Positions 31,151 through 59,332 of a DNA stretch of 64,000 bases are shown here, in pieces. The DNA lies in contig NZ_CANMRQ010000002.1 of NCBI RefSeq assembly GCF_947500325.1, forward strand, positions 434,001 through 498,000. The letters run 5' to 3'. This DNA comes from an uncultured Lacinutrix sp. (lineage in GTDB: Bacteria; Bacteroidota; Bacteroidia; Flavobacteriales; Flavobacteriaceae). The translations under genes were made by a program, and so were the position numbers. Below the pieces are notes generated by a model. That model was not told the origin of the DNA. It made no database searches and was given only the letters and a program-made list of their open reading frames with translations. Position 1 is the first letter of the stretch. Each line of letters begins with the position of its first letter.

Positions 31151-31732
31151 ATGATAAATAAAGCTTTATCTTTTATAGAAGATCAAACTAATTTGTATTT
31201 GCAAGGTTTGCTTGGAGCATCAACATTAAAGTATGCCGTTTTAGGAAATATTGCAAATATTTTAGACAATGGCGATACTACTAATTCTCAGAATACTACA
31301 GGAGTAGTAATTACTTTAGTTAACATTGAAGAGGATCGTATTTCTAAAAGCCCAGATGGTGTTTACCGTCAATTAGATGGTGTAATAAAAACGAACCCAA
31401 GAATTCCACTTAATTTATATGTATTGTTCTCTATTAATATGAATAGTTATACAACAGCTTTAAGTAGGATTTCTAATGTAATTCAATGTTTTCAAAGCAC
31501 AAATTTTTTCACAAGAGACACATTTCCTTCTCTTGATTCTGGTATCGAAAAACTGCATATGGAATTGTACACTATGAATTTCGAACAAGTCAATCATTTA
31601 TGGAGTACACTTGGAGGTAAATACCTTCCTTCTGTCTTGTATAAAATGAGGATGGTTGTAATTGCAGATCAAGATAATCAAACGGGAGCTGGATTAATAC
31701 AAGAAATAATCACAAATAAAAATGTCATTTAA
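31151..31732 (+). CDS. eCIS cap/terminator protein, DUF4255 (Pvc16/Afp16-like)
   Basis: The 193-residue protein matches the DUF4255/Pvc16 N-terminal domain pattern: MINKALSFIEDQTNLYL, then VVITLVNIEEDRISKSP, PLNLYVLFSINM, the FFTRDTFPSL segment and LHMELYTMNFEQVNHLWSTLGGKYLPSVLYKMRMVVI. In Afp/PVC particles this protein caps the distal end of the tube and sheath. It lacks any C-terminal extension. It is first in the operon here, whereas pvc16 and afp16 are last in the classical loci. Confidence 0.85.
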   Translation: MINKALSFIEDQTNLYLQGLLGASTLKYAVLGNIANILDNGDTTNSQNTTGVVITLVNIEEDRISKSPDGVYRQLDGVIKTNPRIPLNLYVLFSINMNSYTTALSRISNVIQCFQSTNFFTRDTFPSLDSGIEKLHMELYTMNFEQVNHLWSTLGGKYLPSVLYKMRMVVIADQDNQTGAGLIQEIITNKNVI

Positions 31733-31753
31733 AAGAACTTTAATTAAATAATT

Positions 31754-32992
31754 ATGCGATACTCGCTCATTTTTACTATAGAACTTGAACACGATTATTA
31801 TTCGGTAACAACTCCTTCGTTGTTACGAATTGTTCCTACTGTAAAGACGAGAAAGATATTAATTGGTGCAGGTTTAATTGTAAAGTTTTTTCAAAATAAA
31901 CTTTATGTATTAGTTAAACATATAGATGATACAATACCACTTCTAAAATTGAGTAACGATTTTAAACTTCAATTTTTTATTGAAATTATTGACTCTAATT
32001 TTTCAAGTATAACGAACTATACTTCAATAGATCCATATAATGTTAAATTATATTTCAGCAATACAAATTCTATTATTGATGGAAATAATAAATCTATAGA
32101 TAATATTCTTTTTCTAAATGAAAAACTCCCAATATTTGATGCAACTCAGGCATATGCATATAATGATTTAGTGCGTAACGGATCTGATGTAGCTTATGAG
32201 TGTTTAAAAAAAGTAGATGCAAATACAGGTAATCTAAATGATGATGAACAATTTAGGGAGTTAGAAGAAGTGAGTTATGTTACTTCAGAGACAGCAATAC
32301 GATTTACTGGAACAGCCACAACAATATCATTAAATAATCCTTCGACGACAATTGAGATAACTTATTATAAGTATAATATTATCACTAATGACTTTGATAT
32401 TGAATTGAAAAAAACAACTATTGGTATTATCGAAAACCCTACAGAAGATATAATAAATAAAGTGTCTCTTAATTTCTTAGATGAGTTAAATATACCTTTT
32501 CAGGAAGGTATATACCGAGTAACAATAAATTCTCAAGAAGAATATTTTTATTTCAGGTTAGAAAACGATTGGCAGCCTTATATAGGACTTATTAATATTC
32601 ACAATAATAGTCTTGCTACCGAGGATGAATATCGCATTTTAAAAGAAGATGGAAGCTTCTACACCATTGCTCCAGAAAATACAGAAATAGAAGTTCGAAA
32701 TTATAAAATCAGATTTGCGCCAGCTCAATATTTGCTAAAATATGTATGTAAAACAAATTTAGTAACCGATATCGTTGATGACGATGGAAATATTGAATTT
32801 GATAATCTAGGAGGAAACATCTTTCGAAGTAGACTTCCTGTAAGAATGAATGAACAGGCAATAGATACTATATCTGTAACCTATACAGGATCAGATGCAT
32901 TAAAAAAAACAAAAGTACCAGGACATCGAGAGTTATCAATTCTTGATGATGAAAATAAATATATAGTAAGTGAAACATTTTTGAATCTATAG
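31754..32992 (+). CDS. eCIS-locus protein of unknown function with a CBM5/12-like segment
   Basis: The 412-residue protein has no signal peptide and does not match a named eCIS component that I know. Residues about 124-167 contain ATQAYAYNDLVRNGSDVAYECLKK and ANTGNLNDDEQFREL, which follow the aromatic/GD-V-x-G-x-x-Y-x-C / NtG...W pattern of CBM5/12 chitin-binding modules, with F in place of W at the end. The remainder looks beta-rich (Ig-like). It lies between the cap and the sheath genes, 20 bases from each, so it is probably a structural or surface-decorating part. The CBM link is tentative. Confidence 0.55.
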   Translation: MRYSLIFTIELEHDYYSVTTPSLLRIVPTVKTRKILIGAGLIVKFFQNKLYVLVKHIDDTIPLLKLSNDFKLQFFIEIIDSNFSSITNYTSIDPYNVKLYFSNTNSIIDGNNKSIDNILFLNEKLPIFDATQAYAYNDLVRNGSDVAYECLKKVDANTGNLNDDEQFRELEEVSYVTSETAIRFTGTATTISLNNPSTTIEITYYKYNIITNDFDIELKKTTIGIIENPTEDIINKVSLNFLDELNIPFQEGIYRVTINSQEEYFYFRLENDWQPYIGLINIHNNSLATEDEYRILKEDGSFYTIAPENTEIEVRNYKIRFAPAQYLLKYVCKTNLVTDIVDDDGNIEFDNLGGNIFRSRLPVRMNEQAIDTISVTYTGSDALKKTKVPGHRELSILDDENKYIVSETFLNL

Positions 32993-33012
32993 AATAACTA
33001 AAATCATAAATT

Positions 33013-35103
33013 ATGGCCACAGTTTTTAAAACACCAGGTGTATATGTTGAGGAAATACCAAAATTACCACCATCGGTTGCTCAAGTAGAAACCGCAATTC
33101 CAGCCTTTGTAGGTTATACGGAAAAAGCAGAAAAAAGAGGAGAATCTCTTCATTTAATACCTACTCGTATTTCATCTCTTATAGAGTATAGAAATTATTA
33201 TGGTAATGACAACCCGGTAAATGAAATAGATGTGGTTGTAGATGAGAACAATAATTTTGCAGTAGATAGTATTGATATTGCTAATACAGAGAGGTATCTC
33301 TTGTATGATAGTTTACGTTTGTTTTTTGATAACGGCGGTGGAGATTGTTATATAGTATCTGTAGGAACTTATGGAACAGCTCCAGTCTACGGAGATGAAA
33401 ATGATAGTGCAAGTCCAGGATTAAGAAGTGGAGTAAAGGCTCTAGAAAAATATGACGAACCAACTATTATTCTGTTTCCAGACGCAATAAATGTTGTCGT
33501 TAATGGAAATGATGATCCAGGTTTTTATAGTCTACAACAAATGGCCTTACAGCAATGTGCAAAGTTGCAAGATAGAGTGGGACTTTTCGATTTAAAAGAG
33601 AATATTACAGGCTCAGATTTGGATGAAGCTATTTCTAATTATAGAAATAATATTGGAATAAATGATCTTAAATATGGTGCTGTTTATACACCTAGAATTG
33701 TATCAACCTATCCTAGAAAAGTTAATATCAGTGATTTTAGGGATAACATCGAAGATACAGGAACTAATCCAATAACATTAAATGATCTGTCATCAGATGC
33801 AGAACACTTATCCTTAATTGAAGCTTATGATGCGGCAGCAGCGAATTCAACTTTAGTAGCAGACCATATTACTTCTTTAAAAACAGCAAACGAAACAACA
33901 GGTGCATTATTACCAATTGGTACAGAAGCAACAACATTAAAAGAAAAGTTTTTAATATATAAAAGAGCTGTAGATAGTGCTAGCGATTCTGTAGCTGTAT
34001 TACCTGCAATTCAAGCACTTTTCTCGTTTAGTAGAAATTCATTAATGGTATTTCAAGATATTTATGAAGAATTAGACGCTTCTAGTTCAGTAGCTATGGA
34101 TATTAATTCTTATGCAATTTCAAATAATTTATGGCGAGGCGCTATAAACGATTTAGTAGCAATCGATAAAAATACAGATGTCATGGCATTAAATGCATTA
34201 TCTCCTATTGCTAATGTCTATGCCGAATATGTCGATGGAGATGGAGATAATGTTATTCCGGCGAGTCAAACATGGGTAGGATCTACTTTAGCTTCTATTA
34301 CAGCTTCAATAAAGGATTATGGAGATAATACGGATACAGGGGAACATGTTTTTATGGCAAAACAAATGGCTAATGATGTATTAGGAGCCTATGAAAAGCT
34401 TATTGCTTTTGCAGATACAGTAACTAATGCAGCGAATAGTTATACAAAAGCAGCTCAAGATGCTCTGTATGAAAAGCATTCAGTTATTAGCAATATTGTA
34501 AAAAATATTGAAAAGACTCTTAATACGTTGCCTCCTAGTGGACCAATGGCTGGCATATATGCTAAAGTTGATAATGCACGAGGTGTATGGAAAGCTCCTG
34601 CAAATGTAAGTGTGTCTTCGGTTAGTCAGCCATCAGTTCAAATAAGCCATGAAGAGCAGGCCAATATTAATGTAGATGCAGTAGCAGGAAAATCAATTAA
34701 TGCTATTAGAAGTTTTACAGGAAAAGGGACTGTAGTTTGGGGAGCTAGAACATTGGCAGGAAATGATAATGAATGGAGATATATAAGTGTAAGGCGTTTC
34801 TTTAATATGGTTGAAGAAAGCTGTAAAAAATCTACAGAACCTTTTGTTTTTGAACCAAATGATGCTAATACATGGATTAAAGTACAAACTATGATTGAAA
34901 ATTTCTTGACAAATTTATGGCGTCAAGGCGCGTTGCAAGGCGCAAAACCTGAACACGCATTTTATGTTGCCGTTGGTTTAGGAAAAACGATGTCTGCTGT
35001 AGACATATTAGAAGGAAAGATGATTGTTGAAATAGGAATGGCAGTAGTAAGACCTGCAGAGTTTATTATCCTGCAATTTTCTCATAAACTGGCAGAATCT
35101 TAA
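33013..35103 (+). CDS. eCIS contractile tail sheath protein
   Basis: The 696-residue protein starts FKTPGVYVEEIPKLPPSVAQVETAIPAFVGYTEKA, the conserved beginning of the phage/eCIS sheath family. It ends with the conserved core VWGARTLAGNDNEWRYISVRRFFNMVEES and the extended-arm residues around GMAVVRPAEFIILQF. It polymerises around the tube and contracts to drive it out. The middle region (about 230-540) is a variable insertion exposed on the surface. Only one sheath gene is present, whereas Afp/PVC loci have three. The gene carries 45 bases to the tube gene. Confidence 0.95.
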   Translation: MATVFKTPGVYVEEIPKLPPSVAQVETAIPAFVGYTEKAEKRGESLHLIPTRISSLIEYRNYYGNDNPVNEIDVVVDENNNFAVDSIDIANTERYLLYDSLRLFFDNGGGDCYIVSVGTYGTAPVYGDENDSASPGLRSGVKALEKYDEPTIILFPDAINVVVNGNDDPGFYSLQQMALQQCAKLQDRVGLFDLKENITGSDLDEAISNYRNNIGINDLKYGAVYTPRIVSTYPRKVNISDFRDNIEDTGTNPITLNDLSSDAEHLSLIEAYDAAAANSTLVADHITSLKTANETTGALLPIGTEATTLKEKFLIYKRAVDSASDSVAVLPAIQALFSFSRNSLMVFQDIYEELDASSSVAMDINSYAISNNLWRGAINDLVAIDKNTDVMALNALSPIANVYAEYVDGDGDNVIPASQTWVGSTLASITASIKDYGDNTDTGEHVFMAKQMANDVLGAYEKLIAFADTVTNAANSYTKAAQDALYEKHSVISNIVKNIEKTLNTLPPSGPMAGIYAKVDNARGVWKAPANVSVSSVSQPSVQISHEEQANINVDAVAGKSINAIRSFTGKGTVVWGARTLAGNDNEWRYISVRRFFNMVEESCKKSTEPFVFEPNDANTWIKVQTMIENFLTNLWRQGALQGAKPEHAFYVAVGLGKTMSAVDILEGKMIVEIGMAVVRPAEFIILQFSHKLAES

Positions 35104-35148
35104 TTTTTTAAAATCGCAAAGAGAATTTATAACTAAATAATAATAATT

Positions 35149-35580
35149 ATGGAAAATTATCCTTTACCAAAGTTTCATTTTAAAGTAGAATGGGGTGGAA
35201 ACAAAGTTGGCTTTAGTGAGGTTTCAGGGCTTGACTTTCAAACAGATGTTATTGAGTATAGACATGGTGATAGTCCGGAGTTTCACAAGATTAAAATGCC
35301 TGGTATGCAAAAATATAGTAATGTCACTTTAAAAAGAGGGACGTTTACTGAAGATTTTGATTTTCATGAGTGGGTTAATTCAATAAACATGACTACTGTA
35401 GAACGAAGAGATCTCACTATTAGTCTATTAAATGAAAATCATGAACCCGTTGTATCCTGGAAAATTAAAAACGCATTTCCTATAAAATGGCAACCTAGTG
35501 ATATGAAGGCAGATGGAAATGAAGTTGCTATCGAGACTTTAGAAATAGCTCATGAAGGAATGACATTGGCAGGTAGATAA
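35149..35580 (+). CDS. eCIS inner tube protein 1 (gp19 family)
   Basis: The 143-residue protein has the tail-tube pattern PKFHFKVEWGGNKVGFSEVSGLDFQTDVIEYRHG, then MPGMQKYSNVTLKRGTF and a C-terminal ETLEIAHEGM. Its length is standard for phage gp19-family tubes. The family forms hexameric rings that stack into the inner tube that carries cargo. It immediately follows the sheath gene; a second, paralogous tube gene lies 18 bases downstream. Confidence 0.9.
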   Translation: MENYPLPKFHFKVEWGGNKVGFSEVSGLDFQTDVIEYRHGDSPEFHKIKMPGMQKYSNVTLKRGTFTEDFDFHEWVNSINMTTVERRDLTISLLNENHEPVVSWKIKNAFPIKWQPSDMKADGNEVAIETLEIAHEGMTLAGR

Positions 35581-35597
35581 CAATTAAATAAAAATGA

Positions 35598-36065
35598 GTG
35601 GCTAAAGTAGATTTACATACTGCTGGAGGATATTTTCCTCCTGTAGGGTTTCATTTTAAAGTAGAGTTTATCAATGTTGGAAATGACAATGATGTTCGCT
35701 TTCAAAGTGTTGGAGGACTAAATATGGAGTTGGAAGTAGAAAGTATTAAAGAAGGTGGGCAAAACCTCTTTGAGCATAAAATTCCTGGTCGAAGTAAGTT
35801 TTCAGACCTCACATTAAAAAGAGGGCTTCTCTTAGATTCTGAAGTTATTAAGTGGTTTAAAGATGCATTATATGATAAAGAGTATAAACCCATTTCTATG
35901 AATATTCATTTGCTAAATAATGAACATAAACCATTATTAACATGGAAAGTGTTTAGAGCATGGCCAAGAAAATGGAGTGTTAGTGATCTTAACTCTACCG
36001 ACAATTCAATTATGGTAGAAACATTAGAAATAGCATATAATTATTTTAAAGTAGACAAAGGATAA
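35598..36065 (+). CDS. eCIS inner tube protein 2 (gp19 family, Pvc5-like)
   Basis: A second gp19-family tube protein of 155 residues (PPVGFHFKVEFINVGNDNDVRFQSVGGLNMELEVESI ... LTLKRGLLLDSE in pattern, though diverged from tube 1). In Afp/PVC particles the paralogue forms the ring joining the tube to the baseplate. I start it at GTG 35598, because the ATG at 35594 is out of frame and stops after three codons. It overlaps the DUF5908 gene start by one base (TAATG), indicating translational coupling. Confidence 0.85.
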   Translation: MAKVDLHTAGGYFPPVGFHFKVEFINVGNDNDVRFQSVGGLNMELEVESIKEGGQNLFEHKIPGRSKFSDLTLKRGLLLDSEVIKWFKDALYDKEYKPISMNIHLLNNEHKPLLTWKVFRAWPRKWSVSDLNSTDNSIMVETLEIAYNYFKVDKG

Positions 36066-36250
36066 TGGCTTTAAGTATTAAAAATTTAAAAGTAAATGTT
36101 TCGGTAAATCAGGCACGTTCTGAAGGTGGAGAAGGTAGTAGCACGCCTGTTTCTGAACAGAGCACAGAAAAGAAAATGGATGCCGAAAAAATTGCAAAAG
36201 ATGTAATTGAACAGATAATTCAAATTATCAATAGTAAAACTGAAAGATAA
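36065..36250 (+). CDS. DUF5908 eCIS protein (Pvc6-like)
   Basis: The 61-residue protein has a beta-like N-terminus (LSIKNLKVNVSVNQ), a Ser/Gly/Glu-rich linker and a C-terminal helix (IAKDVIEQIIQIIN). It matches the small DUF5908 family found only in contractile injection loci, at the Afp6/Pvc6 position. It probably helps to join the baseplate to the tube. Both ends overlap neighbouring genes by one base through TAATG junctions. Confidence 0.8.
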   Translation: MALSIKNLKVNVSVNQARSEGGEGSSTPVSEQSTEKKMDAEKIAKDVIEQIIQIINSKTER

Positions 36251-36942
36251 TGGCTCTAGGTAAAATTGAGAAGCTTAAGATTATTGCATTTAAGAATGCC
36301 GATTATTCAGATTCACCTTCTGAGCAACAAACCTTTACCGCTATGTTAAATCCAGAAACGTATGATCTGGATTATAAAATTGAATATCAGGATGGTCAAG
36401 GACAAGGGACAAGTAGTTCTCAACAGCGTTTTACTGTCTCTAAACCAAACGAAATGAGTTTTGAGTTTTTAATTGATAGTTATGGAATACTAGACGATAA
36501 TCCACGAGAATCTATTGAAGATGATATTACAGAATTAAGAGATCTTTTATTAAAATATGAAGGAGACATACATGAACCTAAACATTTTCAAGTATTATGG
36601 GGAAGCTTATTATTTAAAGGAAGATGTACTGGTTTAAACATTAATTTTAAATTATTCAATCCAGATGGAAAACCAACTAGAGCTATTTGTAAAGTTACTT
36701 TTACAGGTAGTATAGAAGATAATTTACGAACAGCAGAAGAGCGTCGTGAATCTCCAGATATGACACATTATCGTTTAATAAAATCGGGAGATACATTACC
36801 TATGTTGTGTTTTAAAATTTACGGAAGTTCTAGTTATTATCTTCAAGTTGCAAAAGTAAATAAACTTTCAAGTTTTAGAGAGCTGTCACCTGGAGACCAA
36901 ATTTTCTTTCCTCCAATCGAAAAAAATACACCTGTGGCATGA
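36250..36942 (+). CDS. eCIS tube/baseplate adaptor with LysM domain (Pvc7-like)
   Basis: The 230-residue protein has an N-terminal tube-adaptor domain (MLNPETYDLDYKIEYQDGQGQG, FEFLIDSYG, FQVLWGSLLFKGRCTGL) and a C-terminal LysM domain (residues about 173-223, YRLIKSGDTLPMLCFKIYG ... LSPGDQIFFPP). The order and length match Pvc7/Afp7 and phage gp53-like adaptors, which link the tube to the spike. It overlaps the VgrG-like gene by 4 bases (ATGA). Confidence 0.9.
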   Translation: MALGKIEKLKIIAFKNADYSDSPSEQQTFTAMLNPETYDLDYKIEYQDGQGQGTSSSQQRFTVSKPNEMSFEFLIDSYGILDDNPRESIEDDITELRDLLLKYEGDIHEPKHFQVLWGSLLFKGRCTGLNINFKLFNPDGKPTRAICKVTFTGSIEDNLRTAEERRESPDMTHYRLIKSGDTLPMLCFKIYGSSSYYLQVAKVNKLSSFRELSPGDQIFFPPIEKNTPVA

Positions 36943-38684: not shown

Positions 38685-38689
38685 TAATT

Positions 38690-38977
38690 ATGGGAGCGCC
38701 AGGAGCAAGAATAGGAGATCTTCATGTATGTCCAATGGTAACGGGAATAGTTCCGCATGTTGGTGGACCTATTTCATTAGGAGCTGCTACAGTAACTATA
38801 GCTGGTGTTCCAGCTGCTAGGGTAGGAGATATGTGTACTTGTGTTGGACCACCAGATACAATATTAGCTGGTTCGTCAACTGTTATGATTGAAGGTATGC
38901 CTGCTGCTAGATTAGGAGACTCAACAAGTCATGGAGGAACAATTGTTTTGGGAGCACTCAACGTATTAATAGGATAA
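38690..38977 (+). CDS. PAAR-domain spike tip (Pvc10-like)
   Basis: The 95-residue protein is a single PAAR domain with two repeats of the pattern IxxxPAARxGD, namely ITIAGVPAARVGDMC-like and VMIEGMPAARLGDSTSHGG segments, and His/Cys residues for the bound metal (DLHVCPM, HGG). It sharpens the tip of the VgrG-like trimer. It has no extension domain, so it carries no covalent toxin. It lies between the spike gene and the gp25 gene, whereas pvc10 follows pvc9 in the classical order. Confidence 0.9.
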   Translation: MGAPGARIGDLHVCPMVTGIVPHVGGPISLGAATVTIAGVPAARVGDMCTCVGPPDTILAGSSTVMIEGMPAARLGDSTSHGGTIVLGALNVLIG

Positions 38978-38987
38978 AATATACAAT

Positions 38988-39431
38988 ATGAATAATGCGC
39001 AAGATTTTATTGGAGTAGGTTGGAGTTTTCCTCCCGAATTTAATCGTGAAACCGGTGAGGTTGAGACAACCAAATTGTATGATGATATTCAAAAGAGTTT
39101 AGAGATTCTTTTAACAACAAGACCAGGAGAACGTGTCATGCAACCTAAATATGGCTGCCATATGGAGCCTCTTTTATTTGAATCATTAGATACAGGTACT
39201 AAAACAATGATTAAGGAACGCATTAGAACTTCCATCTTATATTTTGAACCACGAATTGAGGCAAAGAAAATAACGTTAGATGATTCTAATCAAAATGAAG
39301 GCGTCTTGCTCATCTCTATTGAATATATAGTGAGTGCAACTAATAGTAGATTCAATTTTGTTTTTCCTTTTTACAGCTCGGAAGCAACAGAAATAAATAA
39401 TGAAACCAACAACCACCCTTTAGCTATATAA
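38988..39431 (+). CDS. gp25-like baseplate wedge protein (Pvc9-like)
   Basis: The 147-residue protein has the gp25/GPW core: IGVGWSFPPEFNRETGEVE near the start and the conserved LLTTRPGERVMQPKYGCHMEPLLFE block containing the EPR-like contact region. The downstream ILYFEPRIEAKKITL segment is also typical. It is a conserved baseplate wedge part in phages, T6SS and eCIS. It starts 10 bases after PAAR and is followed by the gpJ-like gene after 2 bases. Confidence 0.9.
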   Translation: MNNAQDFIGVGWSFPPEFNRETGEVETTKLYDDIQKSLEILLTTRPGERVMQPKYGCHMEPLLFESLDTGTKTMIKERIRTSILYFEPRIEAKKITLDDSNQNEGVLLISIEYIVSATNSRFNFVFPFYSSEATEINNETNNHPLAI

Positions 39432-39433
39432 TT

Positions 39434-46202: not shown

Positions 46203-46214
46203 AATAAAAATCTT

Positions 46215-49652: not shown

Positions 49653-49663
49653 ATATATAGTAC

Positions 49664-49686: not shown

Positions 49687-49687
49687 A

Positions 49688-49752: not shown

Positions 49753-49778
49753 AAAGGTGCAAGCAATTGAACCTATAA

Positions 49779-49836
49779 GGACCTTACGAGGTCTAATCCT
49801 CATAGAAGGTGTGTGTTTACACATCTTCTAGAGGAT
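49779..49836 (+). ncRNA. Structured leader element, copy 2 (UACG hairpin plus long hairpin)
   Basis: GGACCT-TACG-AGGTCT (49779-49794) repeats the hairpin of copy 1 with a G-C to A-U compensatory change and another UNCG-class loop. The second hairpin pairs ATCCTC with GAGGAT (49796-49801, 49831-49836), AGAAG with CTTCT and TGTGT with ACACA. It ends 15 bases before the tape-measure ATG, where it could influence ribosome access. Confidence 0.5.
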
Positions 49837-49851
49837 ATTTTAATTAAAAAA

Positions 49852-51267: not shown

Positions 51268-51268
51268 T

Positions 51269-54200
51269 TTGTTTTCAAAGGCAGACAAAACAGTTAAACC
51301 CTCTGTTAAATTACAACGCAAAACAGAGCAGTCTTTTTTTGGTTCTCAAAAAGAGCAGAGAGTTTCTGCGCCTGAATCTACCTTTTTTAAACCAGCTGTC
51401 CAAGCTAAGTTACGAGTAAATAAACCTGATGATAGTTATGAAAAAGAAGCTGATGCCGTAGCAGAAAGCGTTGTTAATATGCCAGAACCTCAAAAGCAAC
51501 CAAATATTACAATAGGACTTCCTGATGTACAGCGTATGGAGGAAACAAAGGATGAAGAGGAAGAAACTTTGCAAATGTCATCTATGACTATTCAGCGTAT
51601 GGTAGAAGAGGAGCAAGAAGATAATACCTCTATTCAAGCAAAACAAATTTCATTTATTCAAAGAGATGTTAATGATATAAATCCCTCATCTAATGAGGAA
51701 GATGAAACTGTACAAACTTATTCTAGTGAGCGGCCAACGATGTATCATTCAGATGTAATACAACGTAGTGGCCGCGGACCTCCAGCTGGTGCTGGGCAAT
51801 TTCAAAGTCAATTGCACAATTCTACCTCTGGCGGGCAGCCAATGGCTAAGCCTGTCGGGAACTTCATGTCGTCCCGGTTTGGGGCAGATTTCAGTACGGT
51901 AAGGATACATACTGATACGAGCGCTCAACAAATGAGTAAGCAAGTGAATGCGCATGCCTTTACCTATGGAAATCATATCTACTTCAATAGTGGAAAATAC
52001 GACCCCGATTCAAAATCGGGGCAGACACTTCTTGCTCATGAGTTAACACATACTATTCAACAAGGAGCTAGTCCAGTATACTCTAATGTACAACGAAAAC
52101 ACAATTTTACTGCTGTACAACGTAAATCTATTTTACAACGTCAAGGTGCACCACAACTCACAAAAGCTGTTGAACTTGCCGAAGCAGAACAAGGCAAGGT
52201 AATAGCGAATAAAGAAGGAGCAGATGGCTACCGTTACGGTTGGGAGCGCCTTATGGAATATTTTGAAACTACTTTTGGAAAAGATAAAATTGTATCTCAA
52301 CCTACTGGAGAGAAAAACATAGTGCCTAAACAGAGTATAAAAAAGAAATCAGAATTTTACGGGGCAGTTGTTGAGGCTGATGCAGACAAAAACGGAAAAG
52401 GTATGAGAGATGTTATGCCTAGTTGGTGTGGTATTTTTGCTTTCTGGGCTCTAAATAAATCTGGAATACCTATGCCTAAATGGCAGCTTGGAGAATCTTT
52501 TATTCCGCCAGAAGCAGCATATCCTTCAGGTCATATTCCTAAACCTGGAGACATCGCTTATAAAGAAGAGCGTTCTCATTATGGGTTAGTAGTGGGTATG
52601 GAAGGTGCTAACAGGGTTAAAAGTGTAAATGGTAATACTGCTGGAGACGACCATATGGGAGGTGAAATACAGGTACAAACACATGATCTAAGTAATTGGC
52701 ATGCTTTCTTTAATCCATTAGTTGCAAAAACGGGGAACCTCAGAGATCCGTCTGAAGGAGATAAAGATACCGAGCCTAAGACCTTTAAAGAGCTTAGAAA
52801 ACTTAAATATAATGTAAGTAGAAAAGCTGAGAATGAAAATGAAGAAGAAGACATTCAAGCAAAGTCTGAGAACCCTCAAAAGGGGAAAGAAGAGGAAGAA
52901 GTAGTTCAAGCAAAACAAGAAGTTAATGAAAAAGATAATGAAGAAGAAGCTATTCAGCGTTCAGAAATAGGAGGAGCAGGAGGATTTGCTTCCAAAGGAA
53001 TAGAAATGGAAAGTGATGATTCATCAGGTTTTATCCAAACCAAGGCAGAATCAACACCAGCAATGCAAATAAGAAATAAATCTCCAGGTAAATTAATTCA
53101 AGGAGGTTGGTTAGGAGATGCATGGGATGCGGTTTCAGGTTTAGCTTCAGATGTTGCCGACTTAATAGAAGAAGGGTTAGATGCTGCCAAAAATTGGCTG
53201 CTTGATAAAGTACGTGATTTTGTTGTAGAAATACCAGGATACACACTCTTGAGTTATATTTTAGGATATGATCCTATAACTGGCCGAGGTGTAAATAAAA
53301 CACCAATTACCTTATTGGATGCTGTACTTGATATCATTCCAATTGGTGGCGCTATGGTGAAATGGGTTTTAGAGTATTTCGAAGCCATTAACCCTGTAGC
53401 TGATTGGTTATTCGAATCCGTACAGCGTTTTTCAGATTTAATTGCAAGCGTAGAATCTAGATTCGAAAATTTCTGGAATAGATTGAGTATTGATGATGTG
53501 GCCAATCCTGAACAAGTGATGAATAATGTGGCAAATTTATTCCAATCTATTGTCACAGATATAGTTGATTTTGTAGCAGAAGTAGGAGGAGATTTTTTAA
53601 CTATGGTGAAAGATATAGCTATTTCAACCTTAGTTACTTTTGTTAAAGAATACTTTCCAGATGCTTATGATTTATTGGTCCTTTTACTAGGAGAAGACCC
53701 TATTTCAGGAGAGCAAGTAGCGTTTAATGGGACTAATATTTTAAATGCAGCATTAAAAGTTTTAGGAGAGCGCGGCGCTCAAATTAAATCTCAGATGCTT
53801 GAAAACGGCATTTTTATAAAATGTGTTGAATGGATAGATAGAAGTATTGGATTGGTTCAAGACATTATAAGTGATGTAGGTAACATATTTAGTACAGTTT
53901 GGGAACTAATTACTTTCGATTCACTCTTTAGCCCAATCGAAACTTTTACAGAAATAGCCCAAGCGTTCCTTACTCCAATAAATAGAATTATAGATTTCTT
54001 TACAGATGCTATGATAATACTTATAGGTATTCTTAGAGAAGCATTATTAGAACGATTAAGTAATTATGCAAAAGAAACTAGAGGGTATTTCCTTATTACA
54101 GTTCTTATAGGTAGAGATCCATTTTCTGGTAAAAGAGTATTAAGGAATACAGAGAATATGATTCATGGGTTCTTTAGTCTTATGGAAGGTGGAGAAGCAC

Positions 54201-56680
54201 AATTTCAACAACTTAAAGAGAGTGGAAAAATTGATCAAATGACGCAAAAGGTAGATAAGGCAGTTAAGCGCCTTAATTTTACTTTGGAATATGTTGTTGG
54301 ATTGTTTACGAGCTTATGGGAGGCTTTAGATTGGAATGACTTCTTAAACCCTTTTGAAGTTTTTGCTAGAATTGTGGCTACGTTTGGAGATCCGGTTATT
54401 CGACTTGTTCGTTTTGTAATTACTATTGTCCAAATTGTTGTTGAATTGTTGTTAATCGCAATGAATTTCCCATTCGAAACGGTCAATAATATTATTCAAC
54501 GTTCTTTAGAAGCCTTTGGAAATATTAAGCGAGATCCTATAGGTTTTCTAAAAAATATTTTACGTGGAATTAAACAAGGATTTACTCAATTTTTCGATAA
54601 TATTTTAAAACACCTTATGTCTGGTTTAGCCAATTGGTTATTTGGTTCTTTAGGAGAATTAGGTATCCAAATGCCTCCAGATTTAAGTTTTAAGAGTATT
54701 CTAAACCTTATTATGCAGATTCTAGGGATCAGTATAGAGCATATTATGGAACGTGTTTGGCTTAAATTAACAGAGCAGATTGGTGCAGAAAAAGTAGCTA
54801 AAATTAGAGGAGCTATTGATAAGTTAACGGGTATTTGGACCTTTATTAAAGATGTAATGGATAGAGGGCCAATTGCAATTTGGGAATTTGTACAAGAGAA
54901 ACTTAGTGAATTATGGAATATAGTTTTAGCTGCTGCTAGAAACTGGATTATGACTCGAATTATCGCAAGCGTAACAACTAAACTGTTGAGTATGTTAGAT
55001 CCTACAGGTATTATGGCAGTTATTAATAGTGTAATTGGTATTTATAGAGCTATACAGTCGTTTATTGAACAGTTAAGAGCAATGCTTGAAATATTAAACT
55101 CTTTTGTAAATGGTATTGCAGAGATAGCGGCTGGAAATGTACAAGCCGCTGCCGATTATCTAGAAGGTGCTATGGCAAGAGGTATTCCAGTATTAATTGG
55201 TTTCCTTGCGAATCAAGTTGGTTTAGGAGGTATTGGTAGGCGTATAGCCGAAATTATAACCAGTGTGCGTGTAAAAATAACAGAAGGAATAGATTGGTTA
55301 GTAGCTAAGGCATTACGAATAGGGAGGCCAATTATAGATGGCGTAATTCGAGTAATAGAATTTGGTGAAAGAGTCGTAGGGGGAATAAGGGCTGCATTTG
55401 GGTCTATATTTGGATTCACCGCAGGAGGAGAGTCACATCGTCTTTGGGTAGAAAATAGTGCTGGTTCAACTCGTATTAAAGTAGCTAGTACTCCAATGAA
55501 TTTGGATGCTAAAATTAATGAATGGAGAGAAGCTGCCAATGGAGATTCACAAAAAACTGCAGCGATTAATGAAGTTGAAACGGAGCATAGTATTGCAACT
55601 CAAAAGGCAAATGCTCTTGTTCTTGCTGATCAAGCTAATGATGAACAAAGGGTTACTACAGCTCAAACAGAATTAGACTCTCAAATGAACATATTAAAAA
55701 CTAAAGTTATGGTGGTATTTAATTTAATGCCAGAACTTATAGGAGATAATATAGAGTTGTATTTAAGTGGTAGTGTTGGTTCTGTATTCTTGAATGGTTC
55801 TGGAGCGTTAAATCAACAAGGTATTGAGCTACAGACTAACCTTAGAGGAAAAGGTTATGCTGTTATAGGTAAAACAAGTGAAAGAAGAAGCCATATTAGA
55901 AGAACTGGAGGTACATCTAATCAAGCTTATCATTTTGATAATGATGGGAAATTACAGATAGGTAGTAGTAGCGGAAATCACGAAGAGTATCAAATATCAA
56001 ATATAGATTTTATGGATTTTGAAGGAGATACTAGAGATGCATTTAAAATTAATATAACAACTCAAAATGGTAATAGTTTTGAAGCTTCATTAATGGAGAA
56101 TGAATTAGAAACTACTACGCAAACTAATGTCGAAGAGCAAGAAATAATTGGTAGAGGCTTGGCAAGACAAAGAGACACAGGTGTTTCTGGAAGATCAAGA
56201 ATGAATTCAACTACAGCCACAGGATTGCATAGGGCTCATTTAATAGCAAACAGATTTCAAGGCCCAGGAGAAGCTCAATCGTTAAATATTATTTTAACGA
56301 GCCCTACTTTTAATACCAGAACAATGGCTGATGTAGAAAATTCGATAAGTGATTGGATTGGAGATAGAATTGAAACAAATAGAGATAGAGGTACTTTACA
56401 TGAGAATAGTATTTTGAGGTTCACAATGAAGGTGAAAGCGACCTTAGAATTTAATGAAGGAAGATCGTTAGCTAGGTCAATATTTAATAATCTAATTGCT
56501 AATCAATTTATCGAAGGTGAAATAAATGAAACCGAAATGATGAATCAAATTTTTGAAAAATTAATGCAAGAATCAAATACTTCAGGAACTGGAGATGGTT
56601 TTAGAAGGCAAACTAGAAAAGTAGAATATTTTGTAGATAGTAGTAAAAGAGCAGAAATTGGACCAGATTCTAATATATAG
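51269..56680 (+). CDS. Giant multidomain DUF4157 (eCIScore) cargo: hydrolase, helical repeats and nuclease
   Basis: The 1803-residue protein starts with TTG 51269 (no ATG within 67 codons and a stop 21 bases upstream). Residues about 43-68 carry the KPDDSYEKEADAVAESV leader and 192-268 the DUF4157 core with HELTH (257-261). Residues about 290-485 form a CHAP/NlpC-like domain with C387 in PSWCGIFAFW, H437 in HYGLVVG and N454 in SVNGNT. Three ~141-residue repeats follow (near 657, 799 and 940, each with G-x-DP-x-(S/T)-G), then amphipathic helices to about 1380 and an HRLWVE pretoxin motif. The C-terminal nuclease-like domain has GLHRAHLIANRF (H1657), N1673 and a DVEN motif, resembling Endonuclease_NS_2. 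About 18 short [IVL]Q[RA][KMQ]-type motifs stud the N-terminal third. It is probably loaded into the tube and injected. Confidence 0.75.
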   Translation: MFSKADKTVKPSVKLQRKTEQSFFGSQKEQRVSAPESTFFKPAVQAKLRVNKPDDSYEKEADAVAESVVNMPEPQKQPNITIGLPDVQRMEETKDEEEETLQMSSMTIQRMVEEEQEDNTSIQAKQISFIQRDVNDINPSSNEEDETVQTYSSERPTMYHSDVIQRSGRGPPAGAGQFQSQLHNSTSGGQPMAKPVGNFMSSRFGADFSTVRIHTDTSAQQMSKQVNAHAFTYGNHIYFNSGKYDPDSKSGQTLLAHELTHTIQQGASPVYSNVQRKHNFTAVQRKSILQRQGAPQLTKAVELAEAEQGKVIANKEGADGYRYGWERLMEYFETTFGKDKIVSQPTGEKNIVPKQSIKKKSEFYGAVVEADADKNGKGMRDVMPSWCGIFAFWALNKSGIPMPKWQLGESFIPPEAAYPSGHIPKPGDIAYKEERSHYGLVVGMEGANRVKSVNGNTAGDDHMGGEIQVQTHDLSNWHAFFNPLVAKTGNLRDPSEGDKDTEPKTFKELRKLKYNVSRKAENENEEEDIQAKSENPQKGKEEEEVVQAKQEVNEKDNEEEAIQRSEIGGAGGFASKGIEMESDDSSGFIQTKAESTPAMQIRNKSPGKLIQGGWLGDAWDAVSGLASDVADLIEEGLDAAKNWLLDKVRDFVVEIPGYTLLSYILGYDPITGRGVNKTPITLLDAVLDIIPIGGAMVKWVLEYFEAINPVADWLFESVQRFSDLIASVESRFENFWNRLSIDDVANPEQVMNNVANLFQSIVTDIVDFVAEVGGDFLTMVKDIAISTLVTFVKEYFPDAYDLLVLLLGEDPISGEQVAFNGTNILNAALKVLGERGAQIKSQMLENGIFIKCVEWIDRSIGLVQDIISDVGNIFSTVWELITFDSLFSPIETFTEIAQAFLTPINRIIDFFTDAMIILIGILREALLERLSNYAKETRGYFLITVLIGRDPFSGKRVLRNTENMIHGFFSLMEGGEAQFQQLKESGKIDQMTQKVDKAVKRLNFTLEYVVGLFTSLWEALDWNDFLNPFEVFARIVATFGDPVIRLVRFVITIVQIVVELLLIAMNFPFETVNNIIQRSLEAFGNIKRDPIGFLKNILRGIKQGFTQFFDNILKHLMSGLANWLFGSLGELGIQMPPDLSFKSILNLIMQILGISIEHIMERVWLKLTEQIGAEKVAKIRGAIDKLTGIWTFIKDVMDRGPIAIWEFVQEKLSELWNIVLAAARNWIMTRIIASVTTKLLSMLDPTGIMAVINSVIGIYRAIQSFIEQLRAMLEILNSFVNGIAEIAAGNVQAAADYLEGAMARGIPVLIGFLANQVGLGGIGRRIAEIITSVRVKITEGIDWLVAKALRIGRPIIDGVIRVIEFGERVVGGIRAAFGSIFGFTAGGESHRLWVENSAGSTRIKVASTPMNLDAKINEWREAANGDSQKTAAINEVETEHSIATQKANALVLADQANDEQRVTTAQTELDSQMNILKTKVMVVFNLMPELIGDNIELYLSGSVGSVFLNGSGALNQQGIELQTNLRGKGYAVIGKTSERRSHIRRTGGTSNQAYHFDNDGKLQIGSSSGNHEEYQISNIDFMDFEGDTRDAFKINITTQNGNSFEASLMENELETTTQTNVEEQEIIGRGLARQRDTGVSGRSRMNSTTATGLHRAHLIANRFQGPGEAQSLNIILTSPTFNTRTMADVENSISDWIGDRIETNRDRGTLHENSILRFTMKVKATLEFNEGRSLARSIFNNLIANQFIEGEINETEMMNQIFEKLMQESNTSGTGDGFRRQTRKVEYFVDSSKRAEIGPDSNI

Positions 56681-56701
56681 TATTATTTAATAAATTATAT
56701 C

Positions 56702-57871
56702 ATGAAAAATAAATCATCAAACCAAAGACGGAGAATAAGGCGTCAAAAACCGGCACAGAAGCAAGTGCAAAACGATAATTTCTTTGAATCACAAGTACAG
56801 CGCAAATGTGAAAAATGTGAAGATGAAGAAAAGAAAGGCGTTCAAAAAAAATCTAATGGAGAAACCAAAGGATCTAGTAAAAGTTTTTTTGGACATTATA
56901 TGAATAACATAGGAAGTAAAGGAAATGGTATGTCTATACAAAATAGAGCTTTTTTCGAGGGGAAAATGCAAGATAATTTTGGGGATGTAAAGTTGCACAA
57001 GGATAAAGAAGCCGCTAGTGCAGCCAAAGAAATTGGAGCTAAAGCATTCACTTATAAAAACCATATAGTACTAAATAAAGCTCATTTTGAAGCGGGAAGT
57101 ATAGAAGAAAAAAAGTTAATGGCACATGAATTAAAACATGTTCAACAACAAAAAAACGGAAGGCATGTTATTCAAATGATGCCTGAAGAAGAAAGTACTG
57201 AACCTACTAAAGAAGAAAACGAACAGCAAACTAAAGAAGAAGATGTTCAGGAAGCTTCAGAGGCAGATAACGTGATGATGGAAAAAGAAGCCGAACAGGA
57301 AGAAGAACGTATTATGACTCCTGAGTCTGTACCAGATTTTCAAACCTTTGGTATGCAAACAACCAAAAGAGTATATGCCAATTCAGTCACATTTGAAGGA
57401 AGCACAGATGCGACATTTGATGGAGGTATTGGATCTACTCGAAATTTAACAAGAACACCAAGTGAAGATTGTGTTGGATGTGCAGAGAATGATTGTTATC
57501 ATTATACAGGGCAATTACAAATAGACTATCATGTTGCTACTAGTGTTACATTGCCAGATGTACCGGAAGGATTAACAGATTGTCAACATGAACGTGTTAG
57601 AAATGCAATTGATAATGTGTTGGCACCACATGAACAAGATCATGTGACGGCTTTTAACCAGTATAATGGCACTGTGACTTTAGCTATAGATTATACTGGC
57701 TGTAGTGCTGGAATTCAGGAATTTGTGCAGCAATTACATGAAACTAATGAGGTAGCTCGTAAATCTTCAGCGCAGAGTGCTAGCGATGCGTTAGATCCTT
57801 TTCATATTTCGGTAGATATGGATTGTGAAGACCAAACATCAGCTGCGCCTCCTGAAGAACCAGTAGATTAA
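56702..57871 (+). CDS. Second DUF4157 (eCIScore) cargo with DUF922-like HExxH domain
   Basis: The 389-residue protein opens with basic residues and QVQRKCEKCEDEE/GVQKK motifs. A DUF4157 core follows (FGDVKLHKDKEAASAAKEIGAKAFTYKNHIVLNK, with HELKH at 142-146) and then an acidic linker. The C-terminal ~200 residues contain Cys pairs (DCVGCAENDCYHY, LTDCQHE) and a second zinc motif, HEQDH at 310-314 in the setting LAPHEQDHVTAFNQY. That arrangement resembles DUF922-type predicted metalloproteases. It is a second likely toxin or effector, and the DUF4157 core marks it for eCIS loading. No immunity gene is adjacent. Confidence 0.7.
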   Translation: MKNKSSNQRRRIRRQKPAQKQVQNDNFFESQVQRKCEKCEDEEKKGVQKKSNGETKGSSKSFFGHYMNNIGSKGNGMSIQNRAFFEGKMQDNFGDVKLHKDKEAASAAKEIGAKAFTYKNHIVLNKAHFEAGSIEEKKLMAHELKHVQQQKNGRHVIQMMPEEESTEPTKEENEQQTKEEDVQEASEADNVMMEKEAEQEEERIMTPESVPDFQTFGMQTTKRVYANSVTFEGSTDATFDGGIGSTRNLTRTPSEDCVGCAENDCYHYTGQLQIDYHVATSVTLPDVPEGLTDCQHERVRNAIDNVLAPHEQDHVTAFNQYNGTVTLAIDYTGCSAGIQEFVQQLHETNEVARKSSAQSASDALDPFHISVDMDCEDQTSAAPPEEPVD

Positions 57872-57976
57872 AAGTTAATCTGTTTGTTTACAGTTGAATA
57901 TACTGTATCTTAACATTGTAAACTTCAATTGAATGATTGTAAAATATTCGTTAACGAACTTTTTTAATTAAAAAAA

Positions 57977-59332
57977 ATGAAAACCGTCAAAAATAATGTA
58001 AAACCTATTACTATTCCGAGAAATAAATTTGATGCATGTATTAAAGGAATGAGCGAATTAATTATTCATCGTATTACTGCTGAAAATAATTCATCAAATT
58101 TAGATTTAGAGTCTAGTATAAATGAAGAATTTAGTATTGGGATGAATGCGCTATTACAACTTGAAGATGGATTTTCTTTGGCTGAAAAAATAATTCTTCT
58201 TTTAGCAGTACTACCACATATACAGCCTGGATTTGTAGAAAAATTAATGAGTCAAGTGTTACCAAATGGAGGTGAATTTGTTGCATTTGGAGGAGTTAAA
58301 GGGCAACAATATCGTGGTATAATGCCTACAGGGGAAACCGCACTTTATATTTTAGCAGGAACTAATATTGAGGAGCGATTAAAATACCAGCAATTATTTA
58401 ATAGTGATTGTTTATTTGCAATTCATGGTTTACTTCAATTACATGGTGCGGCACCAGGAGAACCAATTATGAGTGGAAAATTAATTCCAGATCCAGATTG
58501 GTTAGAAAAAATATTACTAGGTAAAGAATCTGCTCCAGTATATAGTGTTGAATTTCCAGCTAGAAAAATTCAAACTGAAATGTTATGGGAAGATTTGGTT
58601 TTACATCCACAAACATTAGAACAAATTAATGATATTCAAATATGGATGGAGTATAATCAACATGTTTTGAAAGATGTCTCCTTTGGAAGAAAAATAAAAC
58701 CAGGCTATCGCGTATTGTTTTATGGGCAAGCTGGTACCGGGAAAACCCTTACAGCTTCTTTACTGGGTAAAAAATTCGATATTCCTGTTTATAGAATTGA
58801 TTTGTCTTTGGTGGTTTCAAAATATATTGGTGAGACAGAAAAACATATAGAAATGGTTTTTAATAGAGCCGAACGAAAAAACTGGATCCTCTTTTTTGAT
58901 GAAGCAGATGCTCTCTTTGGAAAACGAACAAGTGTCCAAAGTTCAAATGATAAATTTGCGAATCAAGAAGTTTCGTATTTATTACAAAGAATAGAAGATT
59001 TTAAAGGGTTGCTTATTTTGGCTTCAAATTTCAAGAATAATATAGATGATGCTTTTCTTAGGCGTTTTCATAATATTATTCACTTCCCTATTCCTGGAGC
59101 GAGCGAAAGGTATAAATTATGGACACAGAGTATTCCACAAGACATGTTTTTAAAAACAGAAATAGATTGGAAAGCAATTGCAGAAAAATATGAAATGACA
59201 GGAGCAGAAATTATTAATGTTATGTATTATGCATCTCTAAGAGCATATGCTAAAAAAAGTAATGCTTTAAAGTTAGAGGATATTTATAGTAGCATAAAAA
59301 AAGAATTTGCAAAACAGGATAAAATTCTGTGA
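57977..59332 (+). CDS. AAA+ ATPase of the eCIS (Pvc15/Afp15-like)
   Basis: The 451-residue protein has a variable N-terminal ~220 residues and a C-terminal AAA+ domain. Walker A is GQAGTGKT (250-257), Walker B LFFDEADALFG (D308, E309), followed by FANQEVSYLLQRIEDF and the arginine-finger region DDAFLRRFHNIIHFPIP. Afp15/Pvc15 ATPases are associated with assembly or cargo loading in every known eCIS. It is the last gene of the locus and is followed by a strong terminator. The 105 bases before it hold no gene and no clear promoter. Confidence 0.9.
   Translation: MKTVKNNVKPITIPRNKFDACIKGMSELIIHRITAENNSSNLDLESSINEEFSIGMNALLQLEDGFSLAEKIILLLAVLPHIQPGFVEKLMSQVLPNGGEFVAFGGVKGQQYRGIMPTGETALYILAGTNIEERLKYQQLFNSDCLFAIHGLLQLHGAAPGEPIMSGKLIPDPDWLEKILLGKESAPVYSVEFPARKIQTEMLWEDLVLHPQTLEQINDIQIWMEYNQHVLKDVSFGRKIKPGYRVLFYGQAGTGKTLTASLLGKKFDIPVYRIDLSLVVSKYIGETEKHIEMVFNRAERKNWILFFDEADALFGKRTSVQSSNDKFANQEVSYLLQRIEDFKGLLILASNFKNNIDDAFLRRFHNIIHFPIPGASERYKLWTQSIPQDMFLKTEIDWKAIAEKYEMTGAEIINVMYYASLRAYAKKSNALKLEDIYSSIKKEFAKQDKIL

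What the first reader, a model, noticed from the sequence alone, without database searches (positions are those of the whole stretch)
31151..59332. Complete eCIS locus with non-canonical order and a single sheath
All essential parts are visible: sheath, two tubes, LysM adaptor, spike, PAAR, gp25, Pvc11, Pvc12, tape measure, AAA+ ATPase and cap. Differences from Afp/PVC are one sheath gene instead of three, the cap gene first, PAAR before gp25, an extra 412-aa gene between cap and sheath, and a large protein with a receptor-type domain in the fibre slot. No lysis, terminase, TssJLM or T6SS membrane-complex genes are present, so it should be released or surface-displayed rather than a T6SS.
Basis: partly seen in the sequence, partly recalled or inferred. 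Interest (0 to 1): 0.85.

Follow-up and report, generated by a model that had tools for sequence, protein, structure and literature searches.

The report
AlgoCIS-type contractile injection system
This is a complete gene cluster for a phage-tail-like molecular syringe of a well-described kind (the AlgoCIS type); its gene order and single sheath look odd beside two textbook examples but are normal for its own group.

Summary
Window 31151-59332 encodes a complete contractile injection system as intact ORFs. Nine structural proteins match solved chains of AlgoCIS (Algoriphagus machipongonensis) or the Anabaena thylakoid CIS; the others are placed by Pfam. The features called unusual are typical of that group: of 80 relatives chosen by sheath similarity, 77 are colinear with the window and 67 have one sheath ORF. 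The 'extra' 412-aa gene is the cap adaptor Alg16B/Cis16B (E 1.4e-50). The fibre-slot protein is an Alg19/Cis13-type tail fibre with one SusC-type domain, not a receptor. Fibre tip and toxin tip are exchanged independently among six close loci, the window included. Gene content cannot tell release from cell-bound use. Verdict: a new member of a known kind, of low surprise. A side finding outside the window is odder: intact sheath-tube pairs without baseplate genes, one in this genome.

The parts
30276..31019 (+). LuxR/GerE-type regulator, ending 131 bases before the cap gene
   Evidence: PF00196 1.2e-17; a luxR-like ORF lies directly before the cap in G023 and in L026, L086 and L099; no match to it between the flanking genes of G004 and G009
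31151..31732 (+). cap, Alg16A-like, single Pvc16_N domain (193 aa)
   Evidence: PF14065 4.1e-35 over residues 17-184
   Evidence: profile A2 (22 sequences) hits 7adz cap adaptor 1.4e-50 and 7b5i All3326 1.8e-48 over its full length; 66 of 68 sequences in this position form one family
33013..35103 (+). single sheath, Alg2-like (696 aa)
   Evidence: 7adz 1.1e-135, 7b5h 6.2e-130
35149..35580 (+). inner tube (Alg1-like by family and order; no PDB search run)
   Evidence: PF06841 5.7e-51
35598..36065 (+). tube initiator, Alg5-like
   Evidence: PF06841 6.1e-43; best PDB hit 7aeb 1.8e-48
   Evidence: ORF overlaps each neighbour by 1 base; profile A3 (15 sequences) hits 7aef 'inner protein (Algo6)' 9.9e-18; plug-like ORF, by a loose pattern, in the same place in 66 of 74 relatives
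36250..36942 (+). LysM tube initiator, Alg7-like
   Evidence: PF19266 1.7e-50; 7aeb 8.3e-63
36939..38684 (+). spike, Alg8-like (VgrG-type)
   Evidence: 7aef 6.3e-161 over residues 4-581
38690..38977 (+). PAAR spike tip, Alg10-like by family and place
   Evidence: PF05488 1.2e-23
38988..39431 (+). gp25-like wedge protein, Alg9-like by family and place
   Evidence: PF04965 4.9e-26
39434..43219 (+). baseplate Alg11/Cis11-like (1261 aa)
   Evidence: 7aeb 9.5e-120; 7b5h All3317 1.7e-116 over residues 256-1242
43212..46202 (+). baseplate Alg12/Cis12-like (996 aa)
   Evidence: 7b5h All3315 2.8e-131, 7aeb Algo12 1.2e-108
46215..49652 (+). tail fibre, Alg19/Cis13-like N-terminal part, CarboxypepD_reg domain near 760-834, variable tip after about residue 945
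   Evidence: 9wt0 3.9e-45, 7b5h All3314 3.6e-38; tip identity 15-18% to three and 59-64% to two of five close relatives
49813..51267 (+). CIS_TMP protein (tape measure)
   Evidence: PF19268 2.1e-65
51269..56680 (+). large cargo protein (1803 aa): eCIS_core 191-267, sub-threshold CHAP-like match near 385-456, long trunk, C-terminal DNA/RNA non-specific endonuclease-like tip
   Evidence: PF13699 7.4e-31; PF05257 0.026 on a fragment, below cut-off; PF13930 27.0 bits on a C-terminal fragment, equal to its cut-off of 27, but 23.2 on the whole protein, below it; tip differs in class between relatives
56702..57871 (+). second eCIS_core cargo protein (389 aa)
   Evidence: PF13699 2.3e-22; no Pfam match in its C-terminal part
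57977..59332 (+). AAA+ ATPase of the cluster
   Evidence: PF00004 9.8e-28
59399..59422 (.). terminator-like inverted repeat followed by a T run, between the cluster and the tRNA
   Evidence: read by eye; no program was run on this stretch
59425..59500 (-). tRNA-Phe whose 3' end faces the cluster
   Evidence: ARAGORN; next to panK in 12 of 13 genus genomes, own included

Best explanation
The locus encodes an AlgoCIS-type (subtype Ib) contractile injection system. A cap (Alg16A-like) and cap adaptor (Alg16B-like) end a tube wrapped in a one-protein sheath. The tube starts on the Alg5/Alg7-like ring above a plugged spike tipped by PAAR. The gp25, Alg11-like and Alg12-like proteins form the baseplate, to which tail fibres bind. 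eCIS_core cargo proteins are loaded in the tube. Fibre binding to a target surface opens the baseplate, the sheath contracts, and the cargo, including a nuclease-like toxin, is delivered. Shown here: gene identities, intactness, order, and a position at a variable site beside tRNA-Phe. Inferred from the solved relatives: assembly and firing. Inferred more weakly: release from the cell, and bacteria as the target. The confidence given is for the identity and the AlgoCIS-like build and firing, not for release; the first rival differs only in where the particle acts.
For: Best PDB match is AlgoCIS for sheath, tube initiator, LysM protein, spike, Alg11-like, cap adaptor (48, profile) and plug (50, profile); the Alg12-like protein matches Anabaena first and Alg12 second. 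The fibre matches first a 1443-aa chain of 9wt0, the length PMC13314943 gives for Alg19. Cap, PAAR, gp25, CIS_TMP, AAA and eCIS_core families are present. 77 of 80 relatives are colinear. Two DUF4157 proteins fill the AlgoCIS tube (PMC8894135, Results part 3 read; that Pfam's eCIS_core is the former DUF4157 is recalled). AlgoCIS binds a bacterium through its fibres (PMC13314943, section read). For bacterial targets: endonuclease NS_2 matches at or above cut-off in the toxin-tip fragments of all four loci scanned (window 58; three relatives 80), and a ~200-aa ORF directly after the toxin gene in three of six close loci, a position typical of immunity genes (recalled).
Against: Sequence only; no particle was seen. 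The NS_2 match is below cut-off on the whole protein (23.2 against 27 bits). The candidate immunity ORF is absent from the window and from two of the five close relatives. The CHAP match is below cut-off. AlphaFold models of toxin tip and fibre C-terminus were unusable (pLDDT 35.8 and 30.2). T6SS-iv and the thylakoid CIS share the core genes but are not described as released particles.
Confidence: 0.88

Rival explanations
1. The same machine in a cell-bound mode (T6SS-iv, thylakoid-CIS or cytoplasmic-CIS-like), firing from inside the producer or after its lysis.
For: PMC8894135 groups AlgoCIS with T6SS-iv and MACs in subtype Ib. Anabaena CIS proteins are second-best or best in every PDB search of the structural proteins, and that system is membrane-anchored.
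Against: A crude hydropathy scan shows no 19-residue window of 1.6 or more starting after residue 795 of the fibre, one weak one in the Alg12-like protein (1.72), three weak ones in the fibre before that point, and none in cap or cap adaptor. No membrane-complex family among the 16 locus proteins scanned.
Confidence: 0.2
2. A defective prophage tail or R-tailocin.
For: Sheath, tube, spike and gp25 hit PHROGs tail families.
Against: Each structural protein tested by PDB search is closest to AlgoCIS or Anabaena CIS. CIS-type Pvc16_N, CIS_tube, CIS_TMP, eCIS_core and AAA are present. No capsid or terminase match among the proteins scanned.
Confidence: 0.01
3. A genuinely divergent eCIS whose order, single sheath and 412-aa gene mark a new subtype.
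Against: Same order in 77 of 80 relatives and one sheath ORF in 67 of 80; the 412-aa gene is a known part. The 80 were chosen by sheath similarity, so this speaks for its own clade only.
Confidence: 0.02

Closest known systems
AlgoCIS of Algoriphagus machipongonensis (PMC8894135: Results parts 1-3 of 4 and passages read; PMC13314943: one section and passages read)
   Same: One sheath protein; short one-domain cap; cap adaptor; plug; LysM tube initiator; long Alg11; Alg19-type fibre; two DUF4157 cargo proteins.
   Different: Cap adaptor is 412 aa against 284; Alg11-like is 1261 aa against 1050 in the PDB chain; fibre has a SusC-type domain and its own tip; the large cargo is 1803 aa with a nuclease-like tip, where the paper predicts a metalloprotease in the C-terminal domain of Cgo1. 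The AlgoCIS gene-order figure itself could not be seen.
Thylakoid-anchored CIS of Anabaena (PMC8894136: two sections read)
   Same: Cis16A/Cis16B bipartite cap, Cis2 sheath, Cis6 plug, extended Cis11/Cis12, Cis13 fibre, two DUF4157 proteins.
   Different: The crown protein Cis19 was not searched for, but no gene between cap and AAA is left unassigned for it; a fibre transmembrane helix was not seen in a crude scan.
eCIS loci of Aquimarina megaterium XH134 (L025/L237) and two uncultured Flavobacteriaceae (L026/L239, L086/L238)
   Same: Same gene order; core proteins and AAA 64-88% identical to the window's, apart from the plug (57-67%) and the tape measure; two eCIS_core genes.
   Different: Fibre and toxin tips differ in class in two of the three; a ~200-aa ORF follows the toxin gene in G060 and G061, not in G062; CIS_TMP is only 38-42% identical to the window's.
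Afp / PVC
   Same: Homologous core parts; weaker PDB matches.

Membership tests
AlgoCIS-type / subtype Ib eCIS | Single Alg2-type sheath | tested here: met
   One sheath gene in the cluster; 7adz E 1.1e-135
AlgoCIS-type / subtype Ib eCIS | Short single-domain cap (Alg16A, 197 aa) | tested here: met
   193 aa, Pvc16_N over residues 17-184
AlgoCIS-type / subtype Ib eCIS | Cap adaptor Alg16B | tested here: met
   Profile A2 against PDB: 7adz 1.4e-50; the single sequence alone did not find 7adz
AlgoCIS-type / subtype Ib eCIS | Plug Alg6 | tested here: met
   Profile A3 against PDB: 7aef 9.9e-18
AlgoCIS-type / subtype Ib eCIS | Alg11 extension forming a spike cage | tested here: inconclusive
   1261-aa homologue aligned to Cis11 over residues 256-1242; the cage domain was not separately delimited or modelled
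AlgoCIS-type / subtype Ib eCIS | Alg19-type downward tail fibre | tested here: met
   Residues 9-557 against the 9wt0 chain, 3.9e-45, for homology only; orientation not testable
AlgoCIS-type / subtype Ib eCIS | DUF4157 (eCIS_core) cargo genes | tested here: met
   7.4e-31 and 2.3e-22
AlgoCIS-type / subtype Ib eCIS | Particles unanchored in the cytoplasm and released | not testable with these tools
   Needs cryo-tomography and supernatant assays
Afp/PVC-type eCIS | Several sheath genes and a long cap | tested here: not met
   One sheath gene, 193-aa cap
Type VI secretion system (canonical) | TssJLM membrane complex and TssBC sheath | tested here: not met
   No such family among the 16 of 17 locus proteins scanned; a separate T6SS-like locus lies on contig C6
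Prophage | Capsid, portal, terminase, lysis genes | tested here: not met
   None among 16 locus proteins in Pfam and 10 in PHROGs; none among 14 neighbouring proteins in Pfam
Thylakoid CIS | Transmembrane helix at the fibre C terminus | tested here: inconclusive
   No 19-residue window of hydropathy 1.6 or more starting after residue 795 of the fibre; crude test

The most novel reading that the evidence does not exclude
Outside the window but in the same genome, a second sheath and tube gene stand alone (contig C3) with no cap, baseplate or spike gene seen in the 35 kb examined. The same pair, with the same neighbours, is in G004, a genome in which no gp25-like or CIS_TMP gene was found. Ten genomes of this sheath lineage hold only part of a cluster; all ten sheath ORFs are intact (they were picked by a full-length match), and in the three pairs tested they evolve under purifying selection. 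Boldest reading: a sheath-tube pair can serve the cell without its own baseplate, either by assembling in trans on another system or as a baseplate-free polymer.
Probability: 0.2. Interest if true: 0.6.

Novelty: new member of a known kind. Interest (0 to 1): 0.22.

Why it matters
It adds a clean Flavobacteriaceae member to the AlgoCIS-type injection systems and removes an apparent novelty: order, single sheath and 'extra' gene are group features. It also gives a small natural comparison: six loci with alike backbones carry two fibre-tip classes and four toxin-tip classes in different combinations. So target recognition and payload can be swapped independently, which matters for how such particles change targets. 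The baseplate-less sheath-tube pairs would matter more if they are functional.

Tried and rejected
Rejected: 412-aa gene as novel (the single-sequence PDB search gave only E 2.8e-4; the family profile gave 1.4e-50). Rejected: SusC-type receptor in the fibre slot (only the N-terminal ~75-residue domain matches; it lies inside the stretch shared with relatives). Rejected: coupling of fibre tip and toxin tip. It looked coupled in four loci, but six loci broke it: G238 has the window's fibre-tip class (59%) with the toxin tip of G061 (82%). The same comparison in other genera gave no clear answer. Rejected: a duplicated tRNA-Phe end as an att site (best ungapped + strand match 15 of 22 bases, far from the cluster at 14497). 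I therefore claim a variable site beside a tRNA, not a shown integration event. Led nowhere: AlphaFold of the toxin tip (2 sequences, pLDDT 35.8) and of the fibre C-terminus (4 sequences, pLDDT 30.2); no fold search was run on either. The promoter scan was no better than shuffles (25 against a mean of 23.7).

Several of the 80 stretches are cut by contig ends; 62 of 80 show all ten core families. The cap-adaptor count rests on 65 of 80 loci in which cap and sheath were found with an ORF above 120 aa between them, plus the window, G023 and G042. The orphan survey was searched with a sheath, so it cannot say that the sheath outlasts other genes. G061 and G374 appear to be one genome (matching contig and coordinates) and only G061 was used. 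The AlgoCIS gene order was not seen (figure not held). Against the bold reading: dN/dS of partial-cluster sheaths (0.089 own-G004, 0.215 G217-G393) is higher than that of the one pair from complete-looking clusters with unsaturated dS (0.031, G228-G401), which fits relaxed selection on remnants; other pairs have saturated dS.
Full report
What is there. ORF listing gives a run of long + strand ORFs from 31151 to 59332. Pfam places cap, both tubes, LysM tube protein, spike, PAAR, gp25, CIS_TMP, two eCIS_core proteins and the AAA+ ATPase. The sheath is placed by Pfam and by the PDB search. The two large baseplate proteins score weakly or not at all in Pfam/NCBIfam but strongly against solved CIS baseplates.

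Gene-by-gene identity. Nine structural proteins were compared with all PDB sequences. AlgoCIS is the best match for the sheath (7adz, 1.1e-135), the second tube (7aeb, 1.8e-48), the LysM protein (7aeb, 8.3e-63), the spike (7aef, 6.3e-161) and the Alg11-like protein (7aeb, 9.5e-120); an Anabaena CIS protein comes next in each. For the Alg12-like protein the order is reversed (7b5h 2.8e-131, then 7aeb 1.2e-108). Fibre, cap adaptor and plug are treated below. Some depositor labels are misleading (for example 'Phosphoserine phosphatase SerB' for the AlgoCIS spike chain); I read them by entry and position. Cap, first tube, PAAR, gp25 and CIS_TMP were placed by Pfam only.

The 'extra' 412-aa gene. 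Alone it finds only Anabaena All3326 at 2.8e-4. ORFs between cap and first sheath were collected from 65 of 80 relatives, and the window, G023 and G042 were added; 66 of these 68 join one family by iterated profile search. A profile of 22 of them (A2) hits the AlgoCIS 'cap adaptor protein' at 1.4e-50 and All3326 over its full length at 1.8e-48. PMC8894135 (Results parts 1 and 2 read) shows that Alg16B joins the cap to the last sheath ring and that its loss gives aberrant, empty particles.

A part not listed. Between the second tube and the LysM gene lies a 61-aa ORF (36065-36250). A profile of 15 such ORFs hits AlgoCIS Alg6 at 9.9e-18 and Anabaena Asl3322 at 1.9e-14. By a loose pattern, a plug-like ORF is in the same place in 66 of 74 relatives that have both neighbours. 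PMC8894135 reports that no particles were found without Alg6.

Is the order unusual? No, for its clade. A scan of GTDB species contigs with a seven-sheath alignment (A1) gave 535 confirmed relatives, of which the best 80 were kept. Of these 80, 77 are colinear with the window order for the ten core families (missing genes and repeats allowed), 62 show all ten families within the held stretch, and 67 have one sheath ORF. The three exceptions are a displaced PAAR (L048) and sheath-tube duplications (L071, L076). In the window's family, G023 and G031 are colinear too, and so is G042 of another family in the order, each with differences: G023 has two sheaths and its AAA gene before the cargo genes, G031 has no ORF between cap and sheath, G042 shows no cargo match. 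The sample was chosen by sheath similarity, so this says nothing about distant subtypes.

The fibre. Residues 9-557 match a 1443-aa chain of 9wt0 (3.9e-45); PMC13314943 gives Alg19 1443 residues (passages) and shows that it mediates binding to Echinicola pacifica cells (section read). The 'receptor-type domain' is a CarboxypepD_reg/SusC N-terminal domain, lying in the stretch that aligns with relatives G060, G061, G062, G064 and G068. A catalogue of eCIS fibres already names carboxypeptidase-regulatory and PKD domains in such fibres (PMC12923769, passages read).

Cargo. The 1803-aa protein has eCIS_core at 191-267, a sub-threshold CHAP match (0.026) and an endonuclease NS_2 match that equals the cut-off on a C-terminal fragment (27.0 bits) but is below it on the whole protein (23.2). 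Tip fragments of three relatives reach that family above cut-off (29.2-33.3 bits). Long linkers between DUF4157 and toxin domains, and a GerE/LuxR regulator beside 25.8% of eCIS loci, are already described (PMC8213781, passages read). Toxin domains fused to DUF4157 in polymorphic toxins are also in print (PMC7073777, passages read).

Exchange of tips. In six close loci (window, G060, G061, G062, G238, G444) the fibre trunk is 61-78% and the toxin trunk 71-86% identical. Fibre tips fall into two classes: window/G062/G238 at 59-69% and G060/G061/G444 at 37-51%, with 15-18% between classes. Toxin tips pair differently: window-G062 57%, G061-G238 82%, all others 15-25%. G062 and G238 are the closest pair in the trunks, yet differ in toxin tip (22%). 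The two tips are therefore swapped independently. A ~200-aa ORF follows the toxin gene in G060, G061 and G238 only; those of G060 and G061 are weakly related (24%, 7e-4) and have no Pfam match. It is a candidate immunity gene, untested. CIS_TMP is only 37-52% identical in the same six loci, unexplained.

Genomic setting. The genes beside the cluster, a Na/H exchanger and tRNA-Phe/panK, are found in the genus. panK is in 13 of 13 genomes, own included, one copy with stops; tRNA-Phe lies next to it in 12 of 13, the thirteenth stretch being short. Close homologues (79-81%) of the exchanger are in 5 of the 12 other genomes, split in G009. Between exchanger and panK lie about 10 kb in G004 and 11.5 kb in G009, with other genes such as TamB-like and MscS-type ones, and about 36, 60 and 70 kb in G001, G002 and G006 (from positions; the last three were read only in part or not at all). 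CIS_TMP matches 7 of 60 genomes searched, own included, and 1 of 12 genus relatives, there only a 177-aa C-terminal piece on another contig. So the cluster is patchy and sits at a variable site. No integrase family was seen among 14 neighbouring proteins and no duplicated tRNA end was found. A tRNA-associated eCIS integration is already reported (PMC8213781, passage).

How it most likely works. By homology: assembly on the plugged spike and baseplate, tube and sheath growth to the cap and adaptor, cargo in the lumen, fibre contact, baseplate opening, contraction, delivery. None of these steps was tested here. Release as free particles is likely by kinship, but T6SS-iv and the thylakoid CIS are close relatives with other modes. 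Bacteria as target is a moderate inference from the nuclease-like tips, the immunity-like ORFs of relatives, and AlgoCIS binding to bacteria.

Side finding. The window's genome has a second sheath-tube pair on contig C3 among host-type genes. G004 has the same pair with the same neighbours (sheath 76% and tube 78% identical, dN/dS 0.089 and 0.108; neighbouring genes 0.05-0.09, panK 0.28). Nearly full-length matches of 59% or more were found in 12 further genomes of 397 in the family and in G004, so 14 with the window's. In four the cluster is present as far as the fetched stretch shows (G154, G228, G401, G411). Ten have only part of it: sheath and tube, or sheath alone, or with a few further genes. 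All 14 sheath ORFs are intact (520-526 aa). For three pairs of partial-cluster genomes the sheath dN/dS is 0.03 (dS saturated), 0.09 and 0.22; the pair G228-G401 from fuller clusters has 0.03, so selection is purifying but may be relaxed. Of the ten partial-cluster genomes, six show no gp25-like gene anywhere: G004, G282, G393, G303, G095, G217. A text search with 'orphan sheath' showed the top 15 of 109 papers, none with that phrase, and one with related terms gave two papers, neither on this by title. Only listings were seen, in a library of open-licence papers.

Verdict. A real, complete and ordinary AlgoCIS-type system: new member of a known kind.

Noticed in passing
Own genome G000 contig C3:104305-106353 (L023:14305-16353, - strand): Stand-alone sheath (523 aa) and tube (153 aa) pair with no other CIS gene in the 35 kb examined; same pair and neighbours in G004 (L183:8161-10220), a genome without gp25-like or CIS_TMP matches; dN/dS 0.089 and 0.108.
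   Followed up: partly
L217-L228 (12 family genomes): Same sheath lineage in four clusters that look complete in the stretch held and in eight partial ones; some partial ones keep an ORF in the cap-adaptor position (inferred by place), sheath and tube but no baseplate gene. The search used the sheath, so which genes persist longest is not known.
   Followed up: partly
Own genome G000 contig C6, L236:7744-18135: Separate T6SS-like locus: TssF, gp25/TssE-like, Hcp (TssD), VgrG-type and Tle1-like lipase genes.
   Followed up: no
window 49813-51267 and relatives: CIS_TMP protein diverges faster (37-52% identity) than the other proteins compared (trunks, Alg12-like, AAA, 389-aa cargo: 59-86%) across six close loci while keeping a length of 470-485 aa.
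   Followed up: no
L237:2629-3270, L239:16118-16732, and the 201-aa ORF after the toxin gene in L253: A ~200-aa ORF directly after the large toxin gene in three loci whose toxin tip differs from the window's; candidate immunity gene, no Pfam match for the first two; absent in G444, whose tip also differs.
   Followed up: partly
L011:19381-19914, L012:1320-3536 (G001, same genus): C-terminal CIS_TMP piece, spike and PAAR genes near each other, with no sheath match in that genome.
   Followed up: no
L019:13070-18839 (G040): Three sheath genes with two tube genes of equal identity to the window tube interleaved.
   Followed up: no
L021/L022 (G030): CIS locus with several genes unmatched to the window between the Alg11-like and Alg12-like genes and a 1149-aa CIS_TMP protein.
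   Followed up: no
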